Shown: positions 36,377 through 45,963 of the stretch, in pieces | Layout: the number at the start of each line of letters is the position of its first letter | Position numbering within the stretch: position 1 is the stretch's first letter | DNA from: Oceanospirillum beijerinckii DSM 7166 | GTDB taxonomy: Bacteria; Pseudomonadota; Gammaproteobacteria; Pseudomonadales; Halomonadaceae | Reading direction: 5' to 3' | DNA length: 64,000 nt | Assembly: GCF_000422425.1 (NCBI RefSeq) | Contig: NZ_AULT01000015.1 | Span: forward strand, 62,001-126,000 | Position numbers and translations under genes: made by a program | Notes under the pieces: generated by a model | Seen by the model: the letters and a program-made list of their open reading frames with translations, nothing else | What the model was told of the DNA's origin: nothing | The model's database searches: none

Positions 36377-36388
36377 TCCCCCAAGCCG

Positions 36389-36422
36389 GAAGCCGCCTGC
36401 TCGGTGGCTTCTGTCTTTTTTC
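36389..36422 (+). terminator. Terminator of nfsA
   Basis: GAAGCCGCC and GGTGGCTTC pair (one G-T wobble) around TGCTC, followed a few bases later by a T-run, 12 bp after the nfsA stop. Confidence 0.85.
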
Positions 36423-36618
36423 TCCTACACACCAACCACCAGCATTATCACTGGCAAGAATTTTACCGCCTGTATCTTGCTCCTATTCTTAATAATGCTC
36501 TATGTCCACAGATAGATGAGTAATTAATCACACTCGCTATTTATATTGCAATTACAATATAAATAGATCTATGCTACGGCATCTTCTAATAATAAAATTG
36601 CTTAAGTAAGGATTTTGT

Positions 36619-37293
36619 ATGGCTGAACACGCTTCTGTACCACTGACTGATTTTATTGAATATCCTGCCGAAGAGATGCAACAGCGCTCTGATGACTTTT
36701 ATCAGGCCATTAAACGTCGTCACAGTGTGCGTAGCTTTTCTGGTCGCTCCGTTGATAGAGCCGTGATTGAAAACTGCTTACGAGCAGCAGGTACAGCCCC
36801 CAGTGGCGCTAATCATCAGCCTTGGCACTTTGTTGCCATTAGTGATCCTGCAGTGAAAAAAGAGGTGCGGGAAAAAGCAGAGCTGGAAGAGCAGCAGTTT
36901 TACGCCGGTCGTGCCGGTGAAGAATGGTTAAACGCACTAAAGCCATTAGGTACCGATGATCAAAAACCGTTTCTGGAAACCGCTCCCTGGCTAATCGCTA
37001 TCTTTGCTCAAACTGTCGGCGGTGTGGAAAGCGGCGATAGCGGCAAAAATTACTATGTGCGGGAATCTGTGGGTATCGCGACAGGGTTTCTGATTGATGC
37101 CCTACATCACTCCGGCCTGGCGACTTTGACCCACACACCAAAACCGATGAAGTTCTTAAATGAGATCTGTAACCGGGACAGCACAGAACGCCCCTATATT
37201 CTGTTGGTGGTGGGTTACCCGGCTGACGATGCGACGATTCCGGTGCACGCGACCAAGAAAAAAGCATTAAAAGAGATCGCAACATTTATATAG
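36619..37293 (+). CDS. Nitroreductase-fold flavoprotein, iodotyrosine deiodinase (IYD)-like
   Basis: A 224-residue FMN protein with an AAGGA site 6 nt before the [39 protein letters not shown] and the late [16 protein letters not shown] align by eye with mammalian iodotyrosine deiodinase better than with NfsB or BluB. The three IYD active-site lid residues (human E157, Y161, K182) have counterparts at identical spacing: Glu and Tyr in EQQFY (about residues 94-98), and Lys 21 residues after that Tyr (DDQK). IYD reductively removes halogen from halotyrosines, and bacterial homologues exist. Substrate here is inferred. Confidence 0.85.
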
Positions 37294-37315: not shown

Positions 37316-37714
37316 TTAACGCTTACTGCCAGAAGAAAAAAGGGACACCTCCACTGTTATCTTATTTCTTCCGGCAGTCTCTTTGCTTTTACCCTGAGCC
37401 GATAGCCAGGCGTTATTATCATGAGTACATTGGAAATCATTGATGCCCAATAGCAGAATCACCAGATCCAGCGGTGAGTACATCTCAATCACCTGCCCAA
37501 GCCCCTCCGATCCATCACGGCCGGGCTTAAAGGGATCATTCCAAATGGTACGACGTCCATTCAGACAGTTTTCGATAATACGCACTGAAACCCCTTGCTC
37601 CAGCAACGTATTTTCAAAAACACCCGGCCAGCGTTTATCAAATGTCAGGCGTTTACGGGTGTTGGGAATAATGCCCCAGGTCAGGCTATCGGCGTATACC
37701 AGAACCTGTTTCAT
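37316..37714 (-). pseudogene. SGNH/GDSL arylesterase, C-terminally truncated
   Basis: Only the first 132 residues resemble the family. MKQVLVYADSLTWG is block I with the nucleophile Ser (Ala replaces the usual Gly of GDSL). RWPGVFENTLLEQGVSVRIIENCLNGRRTIWNDPF follows, and LVILLLGINDFQ is block III with the oxyanion Asn. The catalytic Asp/His block (DxxH) and about 80 C-terminal residues are missing; the end (KITVEVSLFSSGSKR) is unrelated. The gene stops 22 bp from the end of the IYD-like gene, so an internal deletion or frameshift has probably removed the rest. An intact AAGGA ribosome site remains. Confidence 0.7.
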
Positions 37715-37856: not shown

Positions 37857-38447
37857 TTAACACTCACTTTTCTGGTGCTGATAGTGGATCACATCATGGA
37901 ATACCGCAGGCTGTTCGTTGAGGTTACGATAACCATGAGGTTTATCCGCAGCAAAACGAATGGCATCCCCCTGTTTCAGCTCGCGCCATTGGCCATTCAC
38001 CAGCAACTCCAGACAACCGCTTAACACCACAACATGCTCTGTTACCCCAGATTCATGGGGTTCAGCAATACGTTCATAACCGGGTAGCAGAGTCAGCTCA
38101 TACATTTCAAAACCCACACTATCCTCATAAGGGAAGAGTGATGCCACCAGCATGGAATCCTGAGCGGGTCGTCTTCGTAACTGCTCGGCAGAACGTATCC
38201 GTATATCGGCTTCCTGATAACCTGCTTCCTGTTCCTGCGCGGGCTCTATCAGGGTCGACAGCGAGATATGAAAGCCTCCGGCTATCTTCCATAAGGTTGC
38301 CACCGTCGGGCTGGATTCCCCCCGTTCAATTTGCCCCAGCATCGCCTTACTGACACCGGTTTGTTTCGAAGTCTGATCCAAACTCCAGCCTTTTTCAGCC
38401 CTGATTCTCTTTAGGGTTTGACCAATATTGCGATTAATGTCCTGCAT
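37857..38447 (-). CDS. XRE-cupin transcriptional regulator, YdcN-like
   Basis: A 196-residue regulator with a Cro/C1-type helix-turn-helix at about residues 8-62 (LKRIRAEKGWSLDQTSKQTGVSKAMLGQIERG). A C-terminal cupin effector domain runs from about 105 to 190 (PHESGVTEHVVVLSGCLELLVNGQWRELKQGDAIRFAADKPHGY). It is divergent from a BenE-family transporter, the same pairing as E. coli ydcN-ydcO. The gap holds three copies of one palindrome, likely its operators. The start is taken at 38447 where the domain begins; in-frame codons further upstream would run through the operators. Confidence 0.92.
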   Translation of the reverse strand: MQDINRNIGQTLKRIRAEKGWSLDQTSKQTGVSKAMLGQIERGESSPTVATLWKIAGGFHISLSTLIEPAQEQEAGYQEADIRIRSAEQLRRRPAQDSMLVASLFPYEDSVGFEMYELTLLPGYERIAEPHESGVTEHVVVLSGCLELLVNGQWRELKQGDAIRFAADKPHGYRNLNEQPAVFHDVIHYQHQKSEC

Positions 38448-38500
38448 AAATAAACCGGGCTTATAGCATTTTGAGAAAAGAGATAGATAAAAAAACAGTT

Positions 38501-38609
38501 GTGCGTTATAGCGCACGAAGTTAGCATTGTCTACATCGTACGCTATAACGCACAGAAAACGCTCGAAGGAGCAAAAAATTTTACCGATCTTGTGCGCTAT
38601 AACGCACAA
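38501..38609. promoter_or_regulatory. Three palindromic operators GTGCGYTATARCGCAC
   Basis: 16-bp sites lie at 38501-38516 (GTGCGTTATAGCGCAC), 38538-38553 (GTACGCTATAACGCAC) and 38592-38607 (GTGCGCTATAACGCAC), with centres 37 and 54 bp apart. The last can be extended to a 20-bp near-perfect dyad. They fill the gap between the XRE-cupin gene and the transporter gene, so the regulator is the probable ligand and both genes the probable targets. Confidence 0.85.
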
Positions 38610-38632
38610 AGAAGATATAGAAGGAGATAAGA

Positions 38633-39814
38633 ATGAAATATATACCCGCCTTGTCACATACCGTGACAGGCTTTGTGGTCGTTCTGGTAGGGTACGCCAG
38701 CTCGGCGGCAATTATTTTTCAGGCCGCAGAAAGTGCAGGAGCCACGGCAACAGAACTGACTTCATGGCTATGGGCATTAGGTGTCGGTATGGGACTAAGC
38801 AGTATCGGGCTCTCCCTCTATTATCGACAACCGGTATTAACCGCTTGGTCTACGCCAGGTGCCGCTTTGCTGGTTACCAGTCTGTCAGGGCTTAGCATGT
38901 CGGAAGCCATTGGTGCTTTTCTGGCCTGCTCTCTTCTTATTACCGTCTGTGGCATCAGCGGCTGGTTTGATCGCTTAATTTCTCTGCTGCCTCCTGCCCT
39001 GGCGGCGGCTATGCTGGCTGGAGTACTGTTTCCTTTTGGCCTACAGGCCTTCGGGGCTTTACAGTATCAACTGGAGTTAGCCGGTTTGATGCTGTTGTGT
39101 TATCTGTTACTGAAAAACAGCCTGCCCCGTTATGCTATCCCAATCACGCTGTTAGCCGGTTTAGGACTTGCTTCATTACAGGGACAGTTTGATAGCAGCG
39201 GGATAGAGTGGCAGCTGGCCATGCCCGTATTTATGATGCCCAGCTTTTCACTGAATACGCTGATCGGTGTCGCCATTCCACTGTTTGTAGTGACGATGGC
39301 CTCACAAAATATGCCAGGACTGGCAGTGCTAAGAGCCCACGGCTATCAGGCTCCTGCATCACCACTGATCAGCTGGACGGGTATTACAGGCTTGCTCCTG
39401 GCTCCTTTTGGCGGCTTTGCCTTTAACCTGTCAGCTATTACCGCCGCAATTTGTATGAGCGAAGAAGCAGACCCAGACCGGAATAAACGTTATCTAGCAT
39501 CCATCTGGGCGGGCATTTTCTATATGCTTGCGGGTTTATTTGCGGCAACAGTCGCCAGTCTGCTATTGGTGCTGCCTAAGACGTTGATTATGGTGATCGC
39601 AGGACTGGCACTATTAACCACCATAGGTAATAGCCTGGTTAGTGCGCTGGCAGAAGAAAGCGCACACGAAAGTGCATTAATTACCTTTGCGATTACTGCT
39701 TCAGGGTTATCTCTATGGGGTATTGGTAGTGCATTTTGGGGCTTAGTGGTCGGCTTAGGGGTGTATTATCTTCGCCACTATGAGCAAAGAACGACGCTGT
39801 TTACAGCAAAGTAA
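38633..39814 (+). CDS. BenE-family (YdcO-like) transporter
   Basis: A 393-residue polytopic inner-membrane protein of the benzoate:H+ symporter family. Eleven to twelve hydrophobic segments are visible, beginning with TVTGFVVVLVGYASSAAIIF. Family blocks include SWLWALGVGMGLSSIGLSLYY, TAWSTPGAALL (about residues 70-80) and ASQNMPGLAVLRAHGYQ (about 224-240). A GAAGGAGAT ribosome site precedes the ATG. Benzoate itself is not implied, because no aromatic catabolic genes are nearby. Expression is probably controlled by the divergent XRE-cupin protein through the three operators upstream. Confidence 0.92.
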   Translation: MKYIPALSHTVTGFVVVLVGYASSAAIIFQAAESAGATATELTSWLWALGVGMGLSSIGLSLYYRQPVLTAWSTPGAALLVTSLSGLSMSEAIGAFLACSLLITVCGISGWFDRLISLLPPALAAAMLAGVLFPFGLQAFGALQYQLELAGLMLLCYLLLKNSLPRYAIPITLLAGLGLASLQGQFDSSGIEWQLAMPVFMMPSFSLNTLIGVAIPLFVVTMASQNMPGLAVLRAHGYQAPASPLISWTGITGLLLAPFGGFAFNLSAITAAICMSEEADPDRNKRYLASIWAGIFYMLAGLFAATVASLLLVLPKTLIMVIAGLALLTTIGNSLVSALAEESAHESALITFAITASGLSLWGIGSAFWGLVVGLGVYYLRHYEQRTTLFTAK

Positions 39815-41239: not shown

Positions 41240-42559
41240 ATGCGGGATCAGCCACATTTTTTACCCCGATTACAACTGCAATCACTACTGGATCTGCTCA
41301 TAGCGGAGGACTATCAATGTATGGGCCCTCAGATTCAGTCCAATGCCATTGTGTTTAAGCCTTTTAGTCAGGTAACGGCTCTCACCCAAGGCATTACAGA
41401 TTACCAGGATGCCGGGCACTACCGCTTACAGCCCTACGATAGCCCACGAAATTTCCATTGGAATTGCAGTGCTCAACTGCTAAAACCCTATTTCTTTCAA
41501 GCCGAACAGGTATTGTGGCAGGTAGAGAAACAGCAGGATGGTCAGCTGGTGTTCTGCCAGACCCAAAGCCATCAACCCAAACGGGCCTTCTTTGGCGTAA
41601 GAGCCTGCGATATCGCAGCATTAAAACTGCAGGATCAACACTTTTTGCACTCTGAGTTTGTTGATGATCACTACGCCGAGAATAGAAGAAATAATCTCTT
41701 TATTGCGGTTACGTGCAGCAAAGCAGGTGCCAACTGTTTTTGTCATAGAACCAGTGATGGCCCAGCCATTACCGACGGTTATGATCTTTTACTGGATGAA
41801 CTGAATGAAGGTTTTTTGCTTCAAACCGGAAGCGATGAAGGTGAGCGACTGTGTCAGCAATTGCTTCAAACACAGGTTTTGGAGATCGCCAGTTCAGAGC
41901 AACAGCAACAGGCGGATCAAAGCCTGAGTCAGGTACGGCAGACATTGTTCGATAACGATGATCAGCGACTACAATCACATCAGTCTGATCAATCCCAGCC
42001 TCCCCAATTCAAAGCTCAGCAACAATCTCAGCAACAATCTCAACAACAGCACCAACAACCAAAACACCTCCCTTTTGATCCTGAGCTGATCAGACAGGTC
42101 CTGATGCAAAACCTGGATCATCCACATTGGCAAGAACTCGCTGAAACCTGTCTATCCTGCGGAAATTGTACCTCTGTTTGCCCGACCTGCTTCTGTAGCA
42201 GTCAGCGGGATATTCCCGAACTGGATGGCAGCCAAGCGCAACATGTACGCCAGTGGGATTCCTGTTTTAGTCAGGGGCACGGCTATATCCATGGTTATCA
42301 GGTGCGGGGGAAAACTCAGCTGAGATATCAGCAGTGGTTAACCCATAAGCTGGTGAACTGGTATGAGCAATATGGCCGTAGCGGCTGCGTGGGTTGCGGG
42401 CGCTGTGTGACCTGGTGCCCTGTTGGTATTGATTTCACTCAAGCCGCGATGCAGATCTGTCAGGACAACGGCCAGATTAGCGGGGACAGAGTTAGAGGGG
42501 ACAGAGTTAGAGGGGATAGAGTTAGCAAAGATAGAGAAGGAGGACACAATGATAACTAG
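41240..42559 (+). CDS. hydB: Group 3b [NiFe] hydrogenase, iron-sulfur (beta) subunit
   Basis: A 439-residue electron-transfer subunit, similar to the beta chain of archaeal sulfhydrogenase and gamma-bacterial group 3b enzymes. The N-terminal half contains FGVRACDIAALKLQDQHFL, typical of these subunits. The C-terminal part has two 4Fe-4S motifs, CLSCGNCTSVCPTCFC (about residues 303-318) and CVGCGRCVTWCPVGID (about 385-400). It is about 80 residues longer than usual. A Gln/Ser-rich insertion (about residues 215-277) interrupts the domain before the clusters, and the C-terminus has a threefold RGDRV repeat. It overlaps the next gene by 11 bp. Confidence 0.88.
   Translation: MRDQPHFLPRLQLQSLLDLLIAEDYQCMGPQIQSNAIVFKPFSQVTALTQGITDYQDAGHYRLQPYDSPRNFHWNCSAQLLKPYFFQAEQVLWQVEKQQDGQLVFCQTQSHQPKRAFFGVRACDIAALKLQDQHFLHSEFVDDHYAENRRNNLFIAVTCSKAGANCFCHRTSDGPAITDGYDLLLDELNEGFLLQTGSDEGERLCQQLLQTQVLEIASSEQQQQADQSLSQVRQTLFDNDDQRLQSHQSDQSQPPQFKAQQQSQQQSQQQHQQPKHLPFDPELIRQVLMQNLDHPHWQELAETCLSCGNCTSVCPTCFCSSQRDIPELDGSQAQHVRQWDSCFSQGHGYIHGYQVRGKTQLRYQQWLTHKLVNWYEQYGRSGCVGCGRCVTWCPVGIDFTQAAMQICQDNGQISGDRVRGDRVRGDRVSKDREGGHNDN
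42482..42526 (+). repeat. 15-bp tandem repeat (3 copies) at the 3' end of hydB
   Basis: GGGGACAGAGTTAGA at 42482-42496 and 42497-42511 is identical, and the third unit (42512-42526) differs at two bases. In frame it encodes RGDRV-type repeats at the hydB C-terminus, just before the hydG ribosome site. Confidence 0.9.
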
Positions 42560-43463
42560 TCCAACCAGTGACGTTCAGGGTACATTGACTGAGCAAAAGA
42601 CCGTGCAGGTTAAAGCTGACGCTATGATGACTAAGCTCCAGCAACAGCCTTTTAATGCCAGAATCGTCGAGCGTATTCAGGAAAGCCCGGATATTTTTAC
42701 CCTGCGTCTGACCTTCTCTGATCCTGAGCTACAGCAGGCTTACAGCTTTGCGCCGGGGCAATTTAATATGCTCTATCTCTACGGTGTCGGCGAAGTGCCT
42801 ATCTCGATTGTGTCTGATCCTGAACATCCCGGCTCTTTTGACCATACCCTTCGCGCTGTGGGTCGCATCACTCAAGCGATGGCTCAGCTAAAAACCGGTG
42901 ATTATATCGGCGTACGGGGCCCTTTTGGTCGCGGCTGGCCATTAGAGAATGCTCAAGACAGAGATCTGGTGTTGATTACCGGCGGCTTAGGCTGCGCGCC
43001 GCTGGTTTCAGTGATCCATTACGCTCTGAATCGTCGTCAACTCTATAAACGTCTGGTGATTATGCAGGGGGTAAAACACTCCAACGACCTGATCTGGCGA
43101 CAGCAATATCAGCAATGGGCAGAGAGAGAAGATATCCAGATTCTATTAGCCGCCGATGAAACCGGCGCGCACTGGCCCTGGGCCAAGGGTTATGTCACCA
43201 ATCTGATTGCTCAGGCCCAGTTTGATAGTGATAACTGTATCGCCCTACTGTGTGGCCCGGAAGTCATGATGCAAACCGCAGCAAAACAACTGCTACAACG
43301 CCAGGTTCCCGAGCAACAGATCTGGCTCAGTATGGAACGTAATATGAAGTGTGCGGTAGGCCATTGCGGTCACTGCCAGTACGGTGCACATTTTGTCTGT
43401 AAACAAGGTCCGGTGTTTAACTACCCTGAGATTAAACAGCTGCTGAGTCAGGCAGGCTTTTAG
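42549..43463 (+). CDS. hydG: Group 3b [NiFe] hydrogenase, FAD/NAD(P)-binding (gamma) subunit
   Basis: A 304-residue diaphorase subunit. The FAD domain is at about residues 35-135 with FAPGQFNMLYLYGVGEVPISI. The NAD(P)-binding domain has VRGPFGRGWPLE and LVLITGGLGCAPLVSVIHYAL (about 138-165). A C-terminal 2Fe-2S motif is seen as MKCAVGHCGHCQYGAHFVC (about residues 269-287). It passes electrons between NADP(H) and the hydrogenase clusters. The ATG at 42549 has a GGAGG site 6 nt upstream and overlaps the end of hydB. The first 30 residues (rich in Thr/Gln/Lys) are an unusual extension. Confidence 0.9.
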   Translation: MITSPTSDVQGTLTEQKTVQVKADAMMTKLQQQPFNARIVERIQESPDIFTLRLTFSDPELQQAYSFAPGQFNMLYLYGVGEVPISIVSDPEHPGSFDHTLRAVGRITQAMAQLKTGDYIGVRGPFGRGWPLENAQDRDLVLITGGLGCAPLVSVIHYALNRRQLYKRLVIMQGVKHSNDLIWRQQYQQWAEREDIQILLAADETGAHWPWAKGYVTNLIAQAQFDSDNCIALLCGPEVMMQTAAKQLLQRQVPEQQIWLSMERNMKCAVGHCGHCQYGAHFVCKQGPVFNYPEIKQLLSQAGF

Positions 43464-43514
43464 CTCCAATAAATGATTGTAGCTCCAATAAATGGTTATA
43501 GCTCTAAAACATGG
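43461..43514 (+). repeat. 19-bp tandem repeat between hydG and hydD
   Basis: TAGCTCCAATAAATGATTG (43461-43479) and TAGCTCCAATAAATGGTTA (43480-43498) are followed by a degenerate third unit (43499-43514). The first unit contains the hydG stop codon. It widens an otherwise tight operon to a 95-bp gap. Confidence 0.85.
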
Positions 43515-43558
43515 CCTTTAACCCTGGCATACGGCTTTAGTGACAACGAGGATCTTTT

Positions 43559-44512
43559 ATGGCTCAACGGATTCCTGCACAGATCTTATCCCAACACTCA
43601 GACGCTGATGTAACTGTAACGTCAAACGCAGCTACGGATGCCTATGCTGACACCACTAATAATGGTAAGGCCAACGTTGATACCAATACCCGACTAAAAG
43701 TCGCGGTACATAAGTTTGCCTCCTGTGATGGCTGTCAGCTGGCATTTTTAAACGCCGGAGCGGACCTGCTGACCGTTAATCGCTTGTTTGATATTCGCCA
43801 CTTTGCCGAAGCCGGTCTGCTTGACAACCGTCCTCTGATTGAGAGAGATATCGATGTCGCCATTATCGAAGGCAGTGTTTGTACTGCAGAAGATATCCAG
43901 CGCCTACAGCAGATTCGAGACAGCAGCCAACGGCTGATCACCATCGGAGCCTGTGCCACCAGCGGTGGTATTCAGGCACTGCGCAATATGGCCGATGCTC
44001 AGCAGTGGCTGGCAGAGATCTACGCCCGGCCTGAAAGCCTGAGTTCGCTGGATACCGCCACACCGATCAGTCAACACGTTAAGGTGGATCTGGAGCTTTG
44101 GGGTTGCCCGGTGAACACAGAGCAGCTGCTACACGCCCTGAGGAATCTGCTATGGCATAGCCTGCCGGAAAATAATAAAGATAAGGTATGTATGGAGTGT
44201 AAACGGGCAGGCAATATCTGCGTCATGGTGACCGAAAATAAACCCTGCCTGGGGCCCGTTACTCAAGGCAGTTGCGGCGCTATCTGCCCGCATCATGGTC
44301 GGGATTGCTACGGCTGTTATGGTCCAGCGGAGAATACCAATACCGATAGTCTGAGCCAACGCTTTTCAGGTTTCGGGTTATTACCAGAAGAGATCGCCCG
44401 TAAGTTTTTACTGATTAACAGCCAAAGCAAGCCTTTCCTAGAGGAAGGTAAAAAGTGGCATAACCAGCTAACGAGTCAACCGCAAACCAGCGATAAAGGA
44501 CTACGCCTATGA
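43559..44512 (+). CDS. hydD: Group 3b [NiFe] hydrogenase small (delta) subunit
   Basis: A 317-residue small subunit carrying iron-sulfur clusters next to the NiFe site. The proximal-cluster motif SCDGCQLAFLN is at about residues 58-68, with IGACATSGGIQALRN (about 130-144) and LWGCPVN (about 180). A C-terminal Cys-rich region (CMECKRAGNICVM, CLGPVTQGSCGAICPHHGRDCYGC) provides further ligands. There is no Tat signal, so the enzyme is cytoplasmic. The 50-residue N-terminal stretch before the first domain strand is Asp/Thr/Asn-rich and looks like an added tail. It overlaps hydA by 4 bp (ATGA). Confidence 0.92.
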   Translation: MAQRIPAQILSQHSDADVTVTSNAATDAYADTTNNGKANVDTNTRLKVAVHKFASCDGCQLAFLNAGADLLTVNRLFDIRHFAEAGLLDNRPLIERDIDVAIIEGSVCTAEDIQRLQQIRDSSQRLITIGACATSGGIQALRNMADAQQWLAEIYARPESLSSLDTATPISQHVKVDLELWGCPVNTEQLLHALRNLLWHSLPENNKDKVCMECKRAGNICVMVTENKPCLGPVTQGSCGAICPHHGRDCYGCYGPAENTNTDSLSQRFSGFGLLPEEIARKFLLINSQSKPFLEEGKKWHNQLTSQPQTSDKGLRL

Positions 44513-45963
44513 GTCAGAGCCGAAGAATTCAGATTGATGTGCCGACTCTGGCCCGGGTGGAAGGTGAAGGGGCATTAAAGTTCAGCGCCGAAAATGGCCG
44601 GATTACACAGCTGCAACTGCGTATCTATGAACCACCGCGAATGTTTGAAAAACTGCTGGAAGGTCGCCATTACAGCGAGGTGCCGGATATTGTCGCCCGT
44701 ATCTGCGGTATCTGCCCGGTGGCTTATCAGATCAGTGCAGTACAGGCGTTAGAAGATATCTTTCAGGTAGAGATCTCAGACTGGGCAAAAAATCTGCGCC
44801 AGATAATGTATTGCGGCGAATGGATACAGAGCCATGCCCTGCATATTCACCTATTAGCGATTCCCGATTTTTTTGGTTATGACAGTGCTATCGCCATGGC
44901 TGAAGACTATCCACTGGAAGTGACCCGAGGTTTAAAGCTACAGAGCTTGGGGAATAAGCTGATCACTTTGTGTGGTGGCCGCTCTGTACACCCTGTGGGC
45001 TTAAAGGTGGGCGGTTTTCATCACGCACCGGAGCTGGAAGCCGCTCAAACGCTTAAGGCTGAGTTGGAAGAAGCACTGCCTGATATTGAAGCCTTGATCC
45101 ATTGGCTGGACCAAATTTCCCTGCCCGATGATCACCAAGCGTTTACCTGCGTGGCCTTAGCTCCAGATCAGGCTTTAACCCCAGCTCAGGCTTTATCTCC
45201 GGTTCAGGCTACAGCTTCAACAACGACTCAAGGGAATAACCAGATCAACGCAGACTATCCCATTATGGGGCGTCAGCTGACGGCTACTACGAATACCGGA
45301 AACGGGGAAAAGAAAGAGAAAGAGGAAGGGGAAAGAAAAGAGAGCAGGACCGACAAAGAATCAAATACCTCACTTAACCTCGATATCGAACACTTTCAGG
45401 ATCACTTTAAGGAGCACCAGCAGGATTGCTCCACCGCCCTGCACTGCTTATTAGATGGCCAACCCTATCTGGTTGGGCCACTGGCCCGTATTAATCTGAA
45501 CTATGCGCTGTTATTGCCACAAGTTCAGCAGCAGATGACTCAGCTACAAACCCAGTTCCCGAGTCAGAATATGTTCCATAGCGTGATTGCCCGTGCTTTA
45601 GAGCTCTATCAGGCAATACTGCAAGCTATCGAGTGCCTGGAAAATTATCAGCCAACCAATACACCCTATGAAAAGATCACTGTTAAAGCGGGCACCGGTT
45701 TTGGCTGTAGCGAAGCACCACGGGGCATTCTCTGGCATAGCTATCAGGTGGATGAACAGGGGCTGATTAAAAAAGCGACTATCGTACCGCCTACCAGCCA
45801 AAATCAGGCGCGCATCGAACAGGATCTTGAGCAGAGTCTCTATCAATACGGTCTGGAACACAGTGATGATGAGCTGAGGCTTAGAGCTGAAAGTGTGATC
45901 AGAAACTATGATCCCTGTATCTCCTGCGCAACTCACTTTTTAAAGCTGGATATTTCCCGGTAA
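44509..45963 (+). CDS. hydA: Group 3b [NiFe] hydrogenase large (alpha) subunit
   Basis: A 484-residue catalytic subunit. The N-terminal NiFe ligand motif RICGICPVAYQ lies at about residues 64-74 and the C-terminal one, DPCISCATH, at about 468-476. All four Cys are present, and the product ends eight residues after the His, the probable cleavage point of the maturation protease. QSLGNKLITLCGGRSVHPVGLKVGGF is a group 3 signature. A low-complexity insert at about residues 217-297 (Ala/Gln/Pro/Thr, then Lys/Glu-rich) has no family counterpart and accounts for the extra length over about 430. It oxidises or evolves H2 with NADP(H) through the other subunits. Confidence 0.93.
   Translation: MSQSRRIQIDVPTLARVEGEGALKFSAENGRITQLQLRIYEPPRMFEKLLEGRHYSEVPDIVARICGICPVAYQISAVQALEDIFQVEISDWAKNLRQIMYCGEWIQSHALHIHLLAIPDFFGYDSAIAMAEDYPLEVTRGLKLQSLGNKLITLCGGRSVHPVGLKVGGFHHAPELEAAQTLKAELEEALPDIEALIHWLDQISLPDDHQAFTCVALAPDQALTPAQALSPVQATASTTTQGNNQINADYPIMGRQLTATTNTGNGEKKEKEEGERKESRTDKESNTSLNLDIEHFQDHFKEHQQDCSTALHCLLDGQPYLVGPLARINLNYALLLPQVQQQMTQLQTQFPSQNMFHSVIARALELYQAILQAIECLENYQPTNTPYEKITVKAGTGFGCSEAPRGILWHSYQVDEQGLIKKATIVPPTSQNQARIEQDLEQSLYQYGLEHSDDELRLRAESVIRNYDPCISCATHFLKLDISR

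What the first reader, a model, noticed from the sequence alone, without database searches (positions are those of the whole stretch)
36619..37293. Bacterial iodotyrosine-deiodinase homologue with the full active-site lid triad
Glu, Tyr and Lys occur at the exact spacing of human IYD E157/Y161/K182, and flanking blocks (AGTAPSGA, late VGYP) match. Seawater is rich in halogenated aromatics, so dehalogenation of halotyrosines is a plausible role. It sits near nfsA and a broken esterase, without other degradation genes.
Basis: partly seen in the sequence, partly recalled or inferred. Interest (0 to 1): 0.6.

Follow-up and report, generated by a model that had tools for sequence, protein, structure and literature searches.

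The report
Bacterial iodotyrosine deiodinase family gene
A marine bacterium carries an intact gene of the enzyme family that strips iodine from iodotyrosine in the human thyroid; bacterial members with solved structures are already known, so this is a well-supported but ordinary new member, whose natural substrate in the cell is still unknown.

Summary
Window 36619-37293 (+) is an intact 224-aa gene of the iodotyrosine deiodinase (IYD) family. The lid triad Glu91/Tyr95/Lys116 aligns without gaps to human E157/Y161/K182. It is 50% identical to Haliscomenobacter hydrossis IYD and 44-45% to human and mouse IYD. The predicted fold (pLDDT 91) matches iodotyrosine-bound IYD crystals at Z 27, against 18.9 for BluB. 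The tree puts it in a clade (100/99) with the human, mouse and Haliscomenobacter enzymes, apart from BluB and NfsA. The triad is kept in 97 of 97 homologues aligned.

The gene is patchy (4 of 58 genomes of the relatives sample, own included; 15 of 369 of the class sample) and no neighbour gene recurred widely. Co-occurrence with tyrosine catabolism is no stronger than with a histidine-catabolism control. One difference: human, mouse and Haliscomenobacter IYD have Trp two residues before the lid Lys; 96 of 97 rows here, the window's included, do not.

Verdict: a new member of a known family. Dehalogenation of halotyrosines is the best-supported activity but is untested; the role in the cell is unknown.

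The parts
36619..37293 (+). Iodotyrosine deiodinase (IYD) family gene, 224 aa, FMN-dependent nitroreductase superfamily
   Evidence: ORF; PF00881 70.2 bits; best PDB match 5ko7 Haliscomenobacter IYD 1.2e-64; fold Z 27.3 to 5ko8; tree
36889..36891 (+). codon of lid Glu91 (human E157)
   Evidence: alignment; E in 97 of 97 rows
36901..36903 (+). codon of lid Tyr95 (human Y161)
   Evidence: alignment; Y in 97 of 97 rows
36964..36966 (+). codon of lid Lys116 (human K182)
   Evidence: alignment; K in 97 of 97 rows
37135..37137 (+). codon of Thr173, equivalent of mouse T235 / human T239 (FMN contact)
   Evidence: alignment; T in 97 of 97 rows; mouse FMN contacts from a passage of PMC3930498
36387..36413 (+). 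terminator-like hairpin between nfsA and the IYD gene, suggesting separate transcription
   Evidence: 11-pair stem with T tail; a consensus match only (4 terminator-like sites found in the scanned region, 2.5 expected from shuffles); no promoter-like site was found between it and the gene
36607..36612 (+). ribosome-binding-site-like TAAGGA before the ATG
   Evidence: read from the sequence

Best explanation
The gene encodes a soluble bacterial iodotyrosine deiodinase: an FMN enzyme of the nitroreductase superfamily that reductively removes iodide or bromide (chloride less surely) from 3-halotyrosines, returning tyrosine. Proposed steps. (1) FMN is held by the R34/S36/R38 stretch, the PSGA loop and T173 (inferred from alignment to mouse contacts). 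(2) A halotyrosine stacks on the flavin; its amino-acid head is clamped by E91, Y95 and K116, which close the lid (inferred by homology). (3) Reduced FMN passes electrons singly, T173 helping to stabilise the semiquinone, and halide leaves (mechanism recalled for human IYD). (4) Tyrosine goes to protein synthesis or to catabolism; the genome has a 4-hydroxyphenylpyruvate dioxygenase. Family membership is shown here; the activity is inferred; the electron donor and the natural substrate are unknown. It probably works as a stand-alone salvage or detoxification enzyme, not as part of a degradation operon.
For: Sequence: the top five PDB sequences are all IYDs (5ko7 is called nitroreductase but its entry title is Haliscomenobacter IYD), the sixth is IYD 6pz0 (7.1e-23), the next is 2.1e-12. 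Triad and T173 are invariant in 97 of 97 rows (96 distinct sequences), including 16 of 16 loci found by whole-protein or profile search rather than by a short motif. Six of eight mouse FMN contacts are identical: R34, S36, R38, P61, S62, T173. Fold: mean pLDDT 91.0; Foldseek TM by query length 0.88-0.94 to chains with bound halotyrosine, 0.76-0.82 to FMN-only or iodophenol-bound IYD chains, 0.71-0.73 to 6pz0, 0.66-0.68 to 4dn2 and BluB 2isj; Z 27.3 to Haliscomenobacter IYD with iodotyrosine, 27.2 to mouse IYD with iodotyrosine, 22.8 to 6pz0, 18.9 to BluB. Tree: clade of 66 rows, 100/99. Separate transcription is suggested by a terminator-like hairpin after nfsA. Human DEHAL1 debrominates bromotyrosine as well as deiodinating iodotyrosine in vitro (PMC4708624, passages).
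Against: No activity, ligand or metabolite data exist here for this protein. Two of the eight mouse FMN contacts differ (R97 is H35; R275 aligns with K214, a gap-dependent pairing). The Trp two residues before the lid Lys in human, mouse and Haliscomenobacter IYD is Asp114 here. Neighbouring genes give no consistent link to tyrosine or halogen metabolism. Co-occurrence with HPD (10 of 15 IYD genomes against 51 of 354 others) is equalled by hutU (10 of 15 against 38 of 354); within hutU-positive genomes the HPD link vanishes (9 of 10 against 32 of 38, p = 1), and within hutU-negative ones it is not significant (1 of 5 against 19 of 316, p = 0.28). C. elegans SUP-18, an IYD orthologue, regulates a potassium channel and its substrate is unknown (PMC3930498, passages), so orthology does not fix the substrate.
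Confidence: 0.7

Rival explanations
1. It is an IYD-fold reductase whose natural substrate is not a halotyrosine but another zwitterionic or phenolic compound (for example halogenated peptide-derived phenols, halophenols, nitrotyrosine, or a non-halogenated aromatic), with halotyrosine dehalogenation only incidental.
For: The position two before Lys116 is not Trp in 96 of 97 rows aligned (mostly Ala, Asp or Glu), unlike the human, mouse and Haliscomenobacter IYDs. No gene context or specific co-occurrence points to tyrosine. SUP-18 shows that IYD orthologues can have unknown substrates.
Against: E91, Y95, K116 and T173 are invariant in 97 of 97 rows, which argues for a kept amino-acid clamp. 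The model resembles the halotyrosine-bound crystals best.
Confidence: 0.22
2. It is a general NAD(P)H nitroreductase or flavin reductase of the NfsA/NfsB type, resembling IYD only through superfamily kinship.
For: It is in PF00881 and lies next to a true nfsA.
Against: It scores 18.9 bits on the NfsA model (cut-off 223) and 26.7 on the NfsB model (cut-off 227). It lies apart from the own NfsA in the tree. T173, kept in 97 of 97 rows, is the residue whose change in human IYD is recalled to favour nitroreductase chemistry.
Confidence: 0.05
3. It is a BluB-type 5,6-dimethylbenzimidazole synthase.
For: BluB is its best NCBIfam hit by E-value (4.5e-14, 52.3 bits).
Against: The score is far below the 150-bit cut-off; the genome has a separate BluB (256.8 bits); fold Z 18.9 against 27.3 for IYD; apart from the BluB rows in the tree.
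Confidence: 0.01
4. The gene is a recently acquired passenger with little selective value.
For: Patchy: present in 1 of 5 other genomes of the genus; there, none of 13 other window proteins is found within the 20 kb held around it; it lies beside a truncated esterase-like ORF.
Against: The reading frame is intact; 80% protein identity to the congener with the catalytic residues kept, with only 73.7% DNA identity, points to selection on the protein; GC 0.493 is like that of its neighbours (0.476-0.506).
Confidence: 0.02

Closest known systems
Haliscomenobacter hydrossis IYD (PDB 5ko7, 5ko8, 5krd)
   Same: 50.0% identity over 204 aligned residues, same triad at the same positions of the aligned chain, fold Z 27.3 to the iodotyrosine-bound form, bacterial
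   Different: Has Trp at the position of Asp114 and groups with animal IYDs and L118 (set of 4 rows, 100/97); the window lies in another set of 19 proteobacterial rows (97/92)
Human and mouse IYD / DEHAL1 (PDB 4ttb, 4ttc, 3gb5, 3gfd, 3gh8)
   Same: 43.7% and 45.2% identity; E157/Y161/K182 triad; T239/T235; same fold (Z 26.9-27.2 to the iodotyrosine-bound forms)
   Different: Mammalian enzymes have an N-terminal membrane anchor (recalled); here no such stretch (maximum 19-residue hydropathy 1.28); Trp is replaced by Asp114; two FMN contacts are replaced
IYD of PDB 6pz0 (organism recalled as Thermotoga neapolitana)
   Same: IYD fold, Z 22.8
   Different: 31% identity; shorter chain, 192 aa
BluB (PDB 2isj) and NfsA of the same genome
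   Same: Nitroreductase superfamily fold with FMN
   Different: 17% identity to BluB, Z 18.9; separate branches

Membership tests
Iodotyrosine deiodinase (IYD) | Nitroreductase-superfamily FMN fold closest to IYD structures | tested here: met
   Z 27.3 to 5ko8; best non-IYD entry shown, BluB, 18.9
Iodotyrosine deiodinase (IYD) | Lid triad Glu/Tyr/Lys at human E157/Y161/K182 | tested here: met
   E91, Y95, K116; invariant in 97 of 97 rows
Iodotyrosine deiodinase (IYD) | FMN-contact residues of mouse IYD (R96 R97 S98 R100 P123 S124 T235 R275) | tested here: inconclusive
   6 of 8 identical; R97 is H35 and R275 aligns with K214. Haliscomenobacter IYD, crystallised with FMN, itself has T at S98, and this alignment could not place its R275 equivalent reliably
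Iodotyrosine deiodinase (IYD) | Phylogenetic grouping with characterised IYDs, apart from BluB and NfsA | tested here: met
   clade of 66 rows 100/99 with human, mouse and Haliscomenobacter IYD; the outgroup branches are very long, so the root is not placed; 6pz0 and an NfsB were not in the tree
Iodotyrosine deiodinase (IYD) | Reductive dehalogenation of iodo-/bromo-/chlorotyrosine | not testable with these tools
   needs purified protein
Iodotyrosine deiodinase (IYD) | Homodimer (recalled as domain-swapped) | not tested
   only a monomer was predicted
BluB (TIGR02476) | Score above curated cut-off of 150 bits | tested here: not met
   52.3 bits
NfsA (NF008033) | Score above curated cut-off of 223 bits | tested here: not met
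   18.9 bits
NfsB (NF008275) | Score above curated cut-off of 227 bits | tested here: not met
   26.7 bits

The most novel reading that the evidence does not exclude
The bacterial branch to which this protein belongs, which keeps the amino-acid clamp and Thr173 but lacks the Trp beside the lid Lys, is a functionally distinct IYD subfamily with a substrate range different from the animal/Haliscomenobacter branch (for example more bulky or more polar halogenated tyrosine derivatives).
Probability: 0.2. Interest if true: 0.45.

Novelty: new member of a known kind. Interest (0 to 1): 0.2.

Why it matters
Bacterial IYDs with solved structures exist, but their natural role is, to my recall, unsettled. 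This case adds a clear, intact member (the genus is inferred to be Oceanospirillum: the same-genus genome G002 and the named O. sediminis D5 locus lie on contigs of the same length with the same protein). It shows that the gene is patchy and without widely shared gene partners in the loci examined, which argues for a stand-alone salvage or detoxification role rather than a dedicated pathway. It also offers a testable residue difference (Trp against mostly Ala, Asp or Glu next to the lid Lys) between the structurally characterised branch and this one.

Tried and rejected
Gene neighbourhood. Open frames of 83 loci (the window, L023, L024 and L026-L105) were clustered by blastp at 30% identity or more, so more distant shared families could be missed. 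In that pass 73 of 83 loci had the IYD frame picked; 10 lost it to overlapping frames. The most widely shared neighbour cluster within six genes was found under 5 of my genus labels, all Alphaproteobacteria; the copy in L068 is a zinc alcohol dehydrogenase. I then chose 20 close, same-strand neighbours and scanned them with Pfam: 17 of 20 had a hit and no family recurred. Two single cases could matter and were not followed: a TauD/TfdA-family dioxygenase (L103), a family that includes herbicide-degrading enzymes by recall, and a flavodoxin-fold/FMN-reductase protein (L083), a possible electron donor. nfsA is not a constant partner: it is present in 6 of 6 genomes of the genus searched, but in the four congeners whose nfsA region was fetched none of the other 13 window proteins tested was found there (two of those stretches end within 300 bases after nfsA because the contig ends).

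Tyrosine pathway. In the class sample of 369 genomes (matches at E up to 1e-40, a few below the curated cut-offs), HPD and hmgA co-occur with IYD (10 of 15 against 51 of 354, p 1.2e-5; 6 of 15 against 35 of 354, p 0.003), but the control hutU does so at least as strongly (10 of 15 against 38 of 354, p 1.0e-6). The link is read as lifestyle or genome content, not as a pathway. Relatedness was not corrected for, and one control gene was used.

Empty site. An insertion of the gene beside the esterase could not be shown: the esterase-like ORF has no match in the 5 congeners. Base composition gave no sign of foreign origin.

Bias. The 16 loci from the whole-protein and profile searches are less biased, though the query itself carries the triad, the profile cut-off (1e-40) keeps close relatives only, and L003 is the same gene as L026. 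All 16 keep the triad and Thr173. One fragment, L119, was dropped before the count. The tree used 72 rows, thinned to one per genus label among the named loci.

Literature. Eight text searches. I read passages of five papers (PMC3930498; PMC4708624; PMC7538488; PMC6017928; PMC8076288); the rest were seen as listings only, and of the 165 papers only 20 were listed. None of the five studies a bacterial IYD, as far as the passages show; the reference list of PMC8076288 names a thesis on the Haliscomenobacter enzyme and that of PMC6017928 a review of IYD distribution. Four key papers or reviews are not held.

Full report
What is there. The finding's coordinates hold an intact ORF of 224 aa starting with ATG at 36619 and stopping at 37293 on the plus strand. 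It belongs to the nitroreductase superfamily (PF00881, 70.2 bits). Among PDB sequences its best matches are, in order, the IYD of Haliscomenobacter hydrossis (5ko7, 1.2e-64), mouse IYD (1.5e-48, 2.6e-48), human IYD (3.2e-45, 1.5e-44) and IYD 6pz0 (7.1e-23). The next is 4g8s, a putative Geobacter nitroreductase, at 2.1e-12 (names of 5ko7 and 4g8s). Identity over aligned residues is 50.0% to Haliscomenobacter, 45.2% to mouse and 43.7% to human IYD.

The triad. In the alignment to the human chain E91, Y95 and K116 fall exactly on the residues numbered E157, Y161 and K182 by the finder. All three are identical in 97 of 97 homologous rows (96 distinct sequences), window included. One collection was scanned with a motif containing the Lys, so the loci found by whole-protein or profile search matter more: 16 of 16 keep all three, though that query also carried the triad. 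The spacing alone appears in 584 of 20000 shuffles, so the case rests on the full-length match. Mouse IYD's eight FMN contacts are listed in PMC3930498 (passage read). Six are identical here (R34, S36, R38, P61, S62, T173); R97 is H35 and R275 aligns with K214.

Fold and tree. AlphaFold2 on 30 sequences of the window and its loci gave mean pLDDT 91.0 and pTM 0.87. The model matches the halotyrosine-bound IYD crystals best: TM by query length 0.88-0.94, against 0.76-0.82 for FMN-only or iodophenol-bound IYD chains and 0.66-0.68 for 4dn2 and BluB. Z is 27.3, 27.2 and 26.9 to Haliscomenobacter, mouse and human IYD with iodotyrosine, 22.8 to 6pz0, then 18.9 for BluB. In a maximum-likelihood tree of 72 rows, 66 rows including human, mouse and Haliscomenobacter IYD form a clade (100/99) apart from BluB 2isj, the genome's own BluB, NfsA, two other own nitroreductases and 4dn2. 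The outgroup branches are very long, so the root is unknown. The animal and Haliscomenobacter enzymes form a set of four rows with L118 (100/97) among the bacterial rows. The window lies with its congener (100/99; two rows of the same genome) inside a set of 19 proteobacterial rows, mostly Gammaproteobacteria of genera I recall as marine (97/92).

A difference from the characterised enzymes. Human, mouse and Haliscomenobacter IYD all have Trp two residues before the lid Lys. The window has Asp114; of the 97 rows 60 have Ala, 11 Asp, 10 Glu, 15 another residue, and only L118, which groups with Haliscomenobacter, has Trp. One of the motifs admitted only Asp, Ala or Trp here, so these proportions are skewed; in the 16 loci from the other searches 9 have Ala, 4 Glu, 1 Asp, 1 Ser and 1 Trp. 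What this residue does is not known to me; it is a handle for a test, not evidence of a new function.

Distribution. The own genome has one copy; its BluB is the only other match. It has six PF00881 matches in all. Orthologue-level matches (58% identity or more over most of the length) occur in 4 of 58 genomes of the relatives sample, the own included (G000, G002, G045, G051), and in 15 of 369 genomes of the class sample, the own included, at E up to 1e-40, one of them a fragment at a contig end. In the genus 1 of 5 others has it. The 80 kept include Oceanospirillum sediminis (80%), Alteromonas, Colwellia, Thalassotalea, Pseudoalteromonas, Vibrio, Shewanella, many Alphaproteobacteria, Burkholderiales, and metagenome-assembled genomes of Chloroflexota, Gemmatimonadota and Calditrichota.

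Context. nfsA upstream is real (386 bits) but is separated by a terminator-like hairpin at 36387-36413 and is not near the IYD gene in the congener. Downstream is a truncated GDSL-esterase-like ORF on the other strand whose stop lies 22 bases after the IYD stop; it has no match in five congeners. Next come an HTH-cupin regulator and benE. In the congener with the gene, none of 13 other window proteins is found within the 20 kb held. Among 73 loci usable in the clustering no neighbour cluster recurs beyond 5 genus labels, and 20 chosen neighbours scanned with Pfam show unrelated families, with one TauD/TfdA dioxygenase and one flavodoxin-fold protein as single cases that might bear on dehalogenation or electron supply. 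The gene thus appears to persist or travel alone.

Pathway test. If the enzyme fed tyrosine catabolism, it should co-occur with HPD more than with unrelated catabolism. In the class sample HPD is in 10 of 15 IYD genomes and 51 of 354 others; hmgA in 6 of 15 and 35 of 354; but the histidine-pathway control hutU is in 10 of 15 and 38 of 354. Within hutU-positive genomes HPD is in 9 of 10 with IYD and 32 of 38 without (p = 1); within hutU-negative ones in 1 of 5 and 19 of 316 (p = 0.28). The association is thus unspecific, pointing at most to genomes with broad amino-acid catabolism. The genomes are not phylogenetically independent.

How it most likely works. By homology, FMN reduced by an unidentified donor transfers single electrons to a halotyrosine phenolate stacked on it. 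The amino-acid head is clamped by E91, Y95 and K116, which closes the lid, and Thr173 supports the semiquinone (mechanism recalled from work on human IYD, not read here). Human DEHAL1 converted 83% of iodotyrosine and 18% of bromotyrosine in one assay, and the same authors had earlier been unable to show significant dechlorination (PMC4708624, passages). Iodo- and bromotyrosine are therefore the likelier substrates. Shown here: family membership, fold by prediction, triad, distribution in the samples, lack of a widely shared context in the loci examined. Inferred: FMN binding, activity. Unknown: electron donor, natural substrate, benefit to the cell.

Novelty. Bacterial IYDs with crystal structures are known (5ko7, 5ko8, 5krd; 6pz0, organism recalled), so this is a new member of a known kind. 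The eight text searches listed no paper whose title names bacterial IYD, but none searched for the genus Oceanospirillum and the main papers of the field are not in the library, so this says little.

Noticed in passing
window 41240-45963 (+): Four-gene cluster: 4Fe-4S protein, NAD-binding/DHODB-type subunit, small subunit (PF01058) and NiFe hydrogenase large subunit (PF00374), looking like a bidirectional NAD(P)-linked [NiFe] hydrogenase (group 3b by recall).
   Followed up: partly
window about 42420-42560: The C-terminal end of the first hydrogenase-cluster ORF holds an in-frame repeat (GDRVRGDRVRGDRVSKDR) where it overlaps the next ORF as listed.
   Followed up: no
window 37316-37714 (-): Truncated GDSL-esterase-like ORF, only the N-terminal part of the profile matched, its stop 22 bases from the convergent IYD stop; no match in five congeners.
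   Followed up: partly
window 37857-39814: HTH-cupin regulator gene and benE (benzoate transporter family) in divergent orientation with overlapping listed 5' ends; resembles the E. coli ydcN-ydcO arrangement (recalled).
   Followed up: no
L126 3220-4254 (own genome, contig C78): The own genome has a 4-hydroxyphenylpyruvate dioxygenase but no TIGR01015 homogentisate dioxygenase hit at E up to 1e-40; a divergent one was not sought. The 4789-base contig ends soon after the gene.
   Followed up: partly
L106 and L109: IYD homologues lie in open frames of 419 and 416 aa, possibly fusions or just long open frames.
   Followed up: no
L083 9341-9940 and L103 8828-9949: Immediately upstream of IYD homologues: a flavodoxin-fold/FMN-reductase protein (L083, possible electron donor) and a TauD/TfdA-family dioxygenase (L103).
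   Followed up: no
L135 (own genome, contig C14): A second NfsA-like protein (142.9 bits on the NfsA model, cut-off 223; 34% identical to the window's NfsA) with a counterpart in G002.
   Followed up: no
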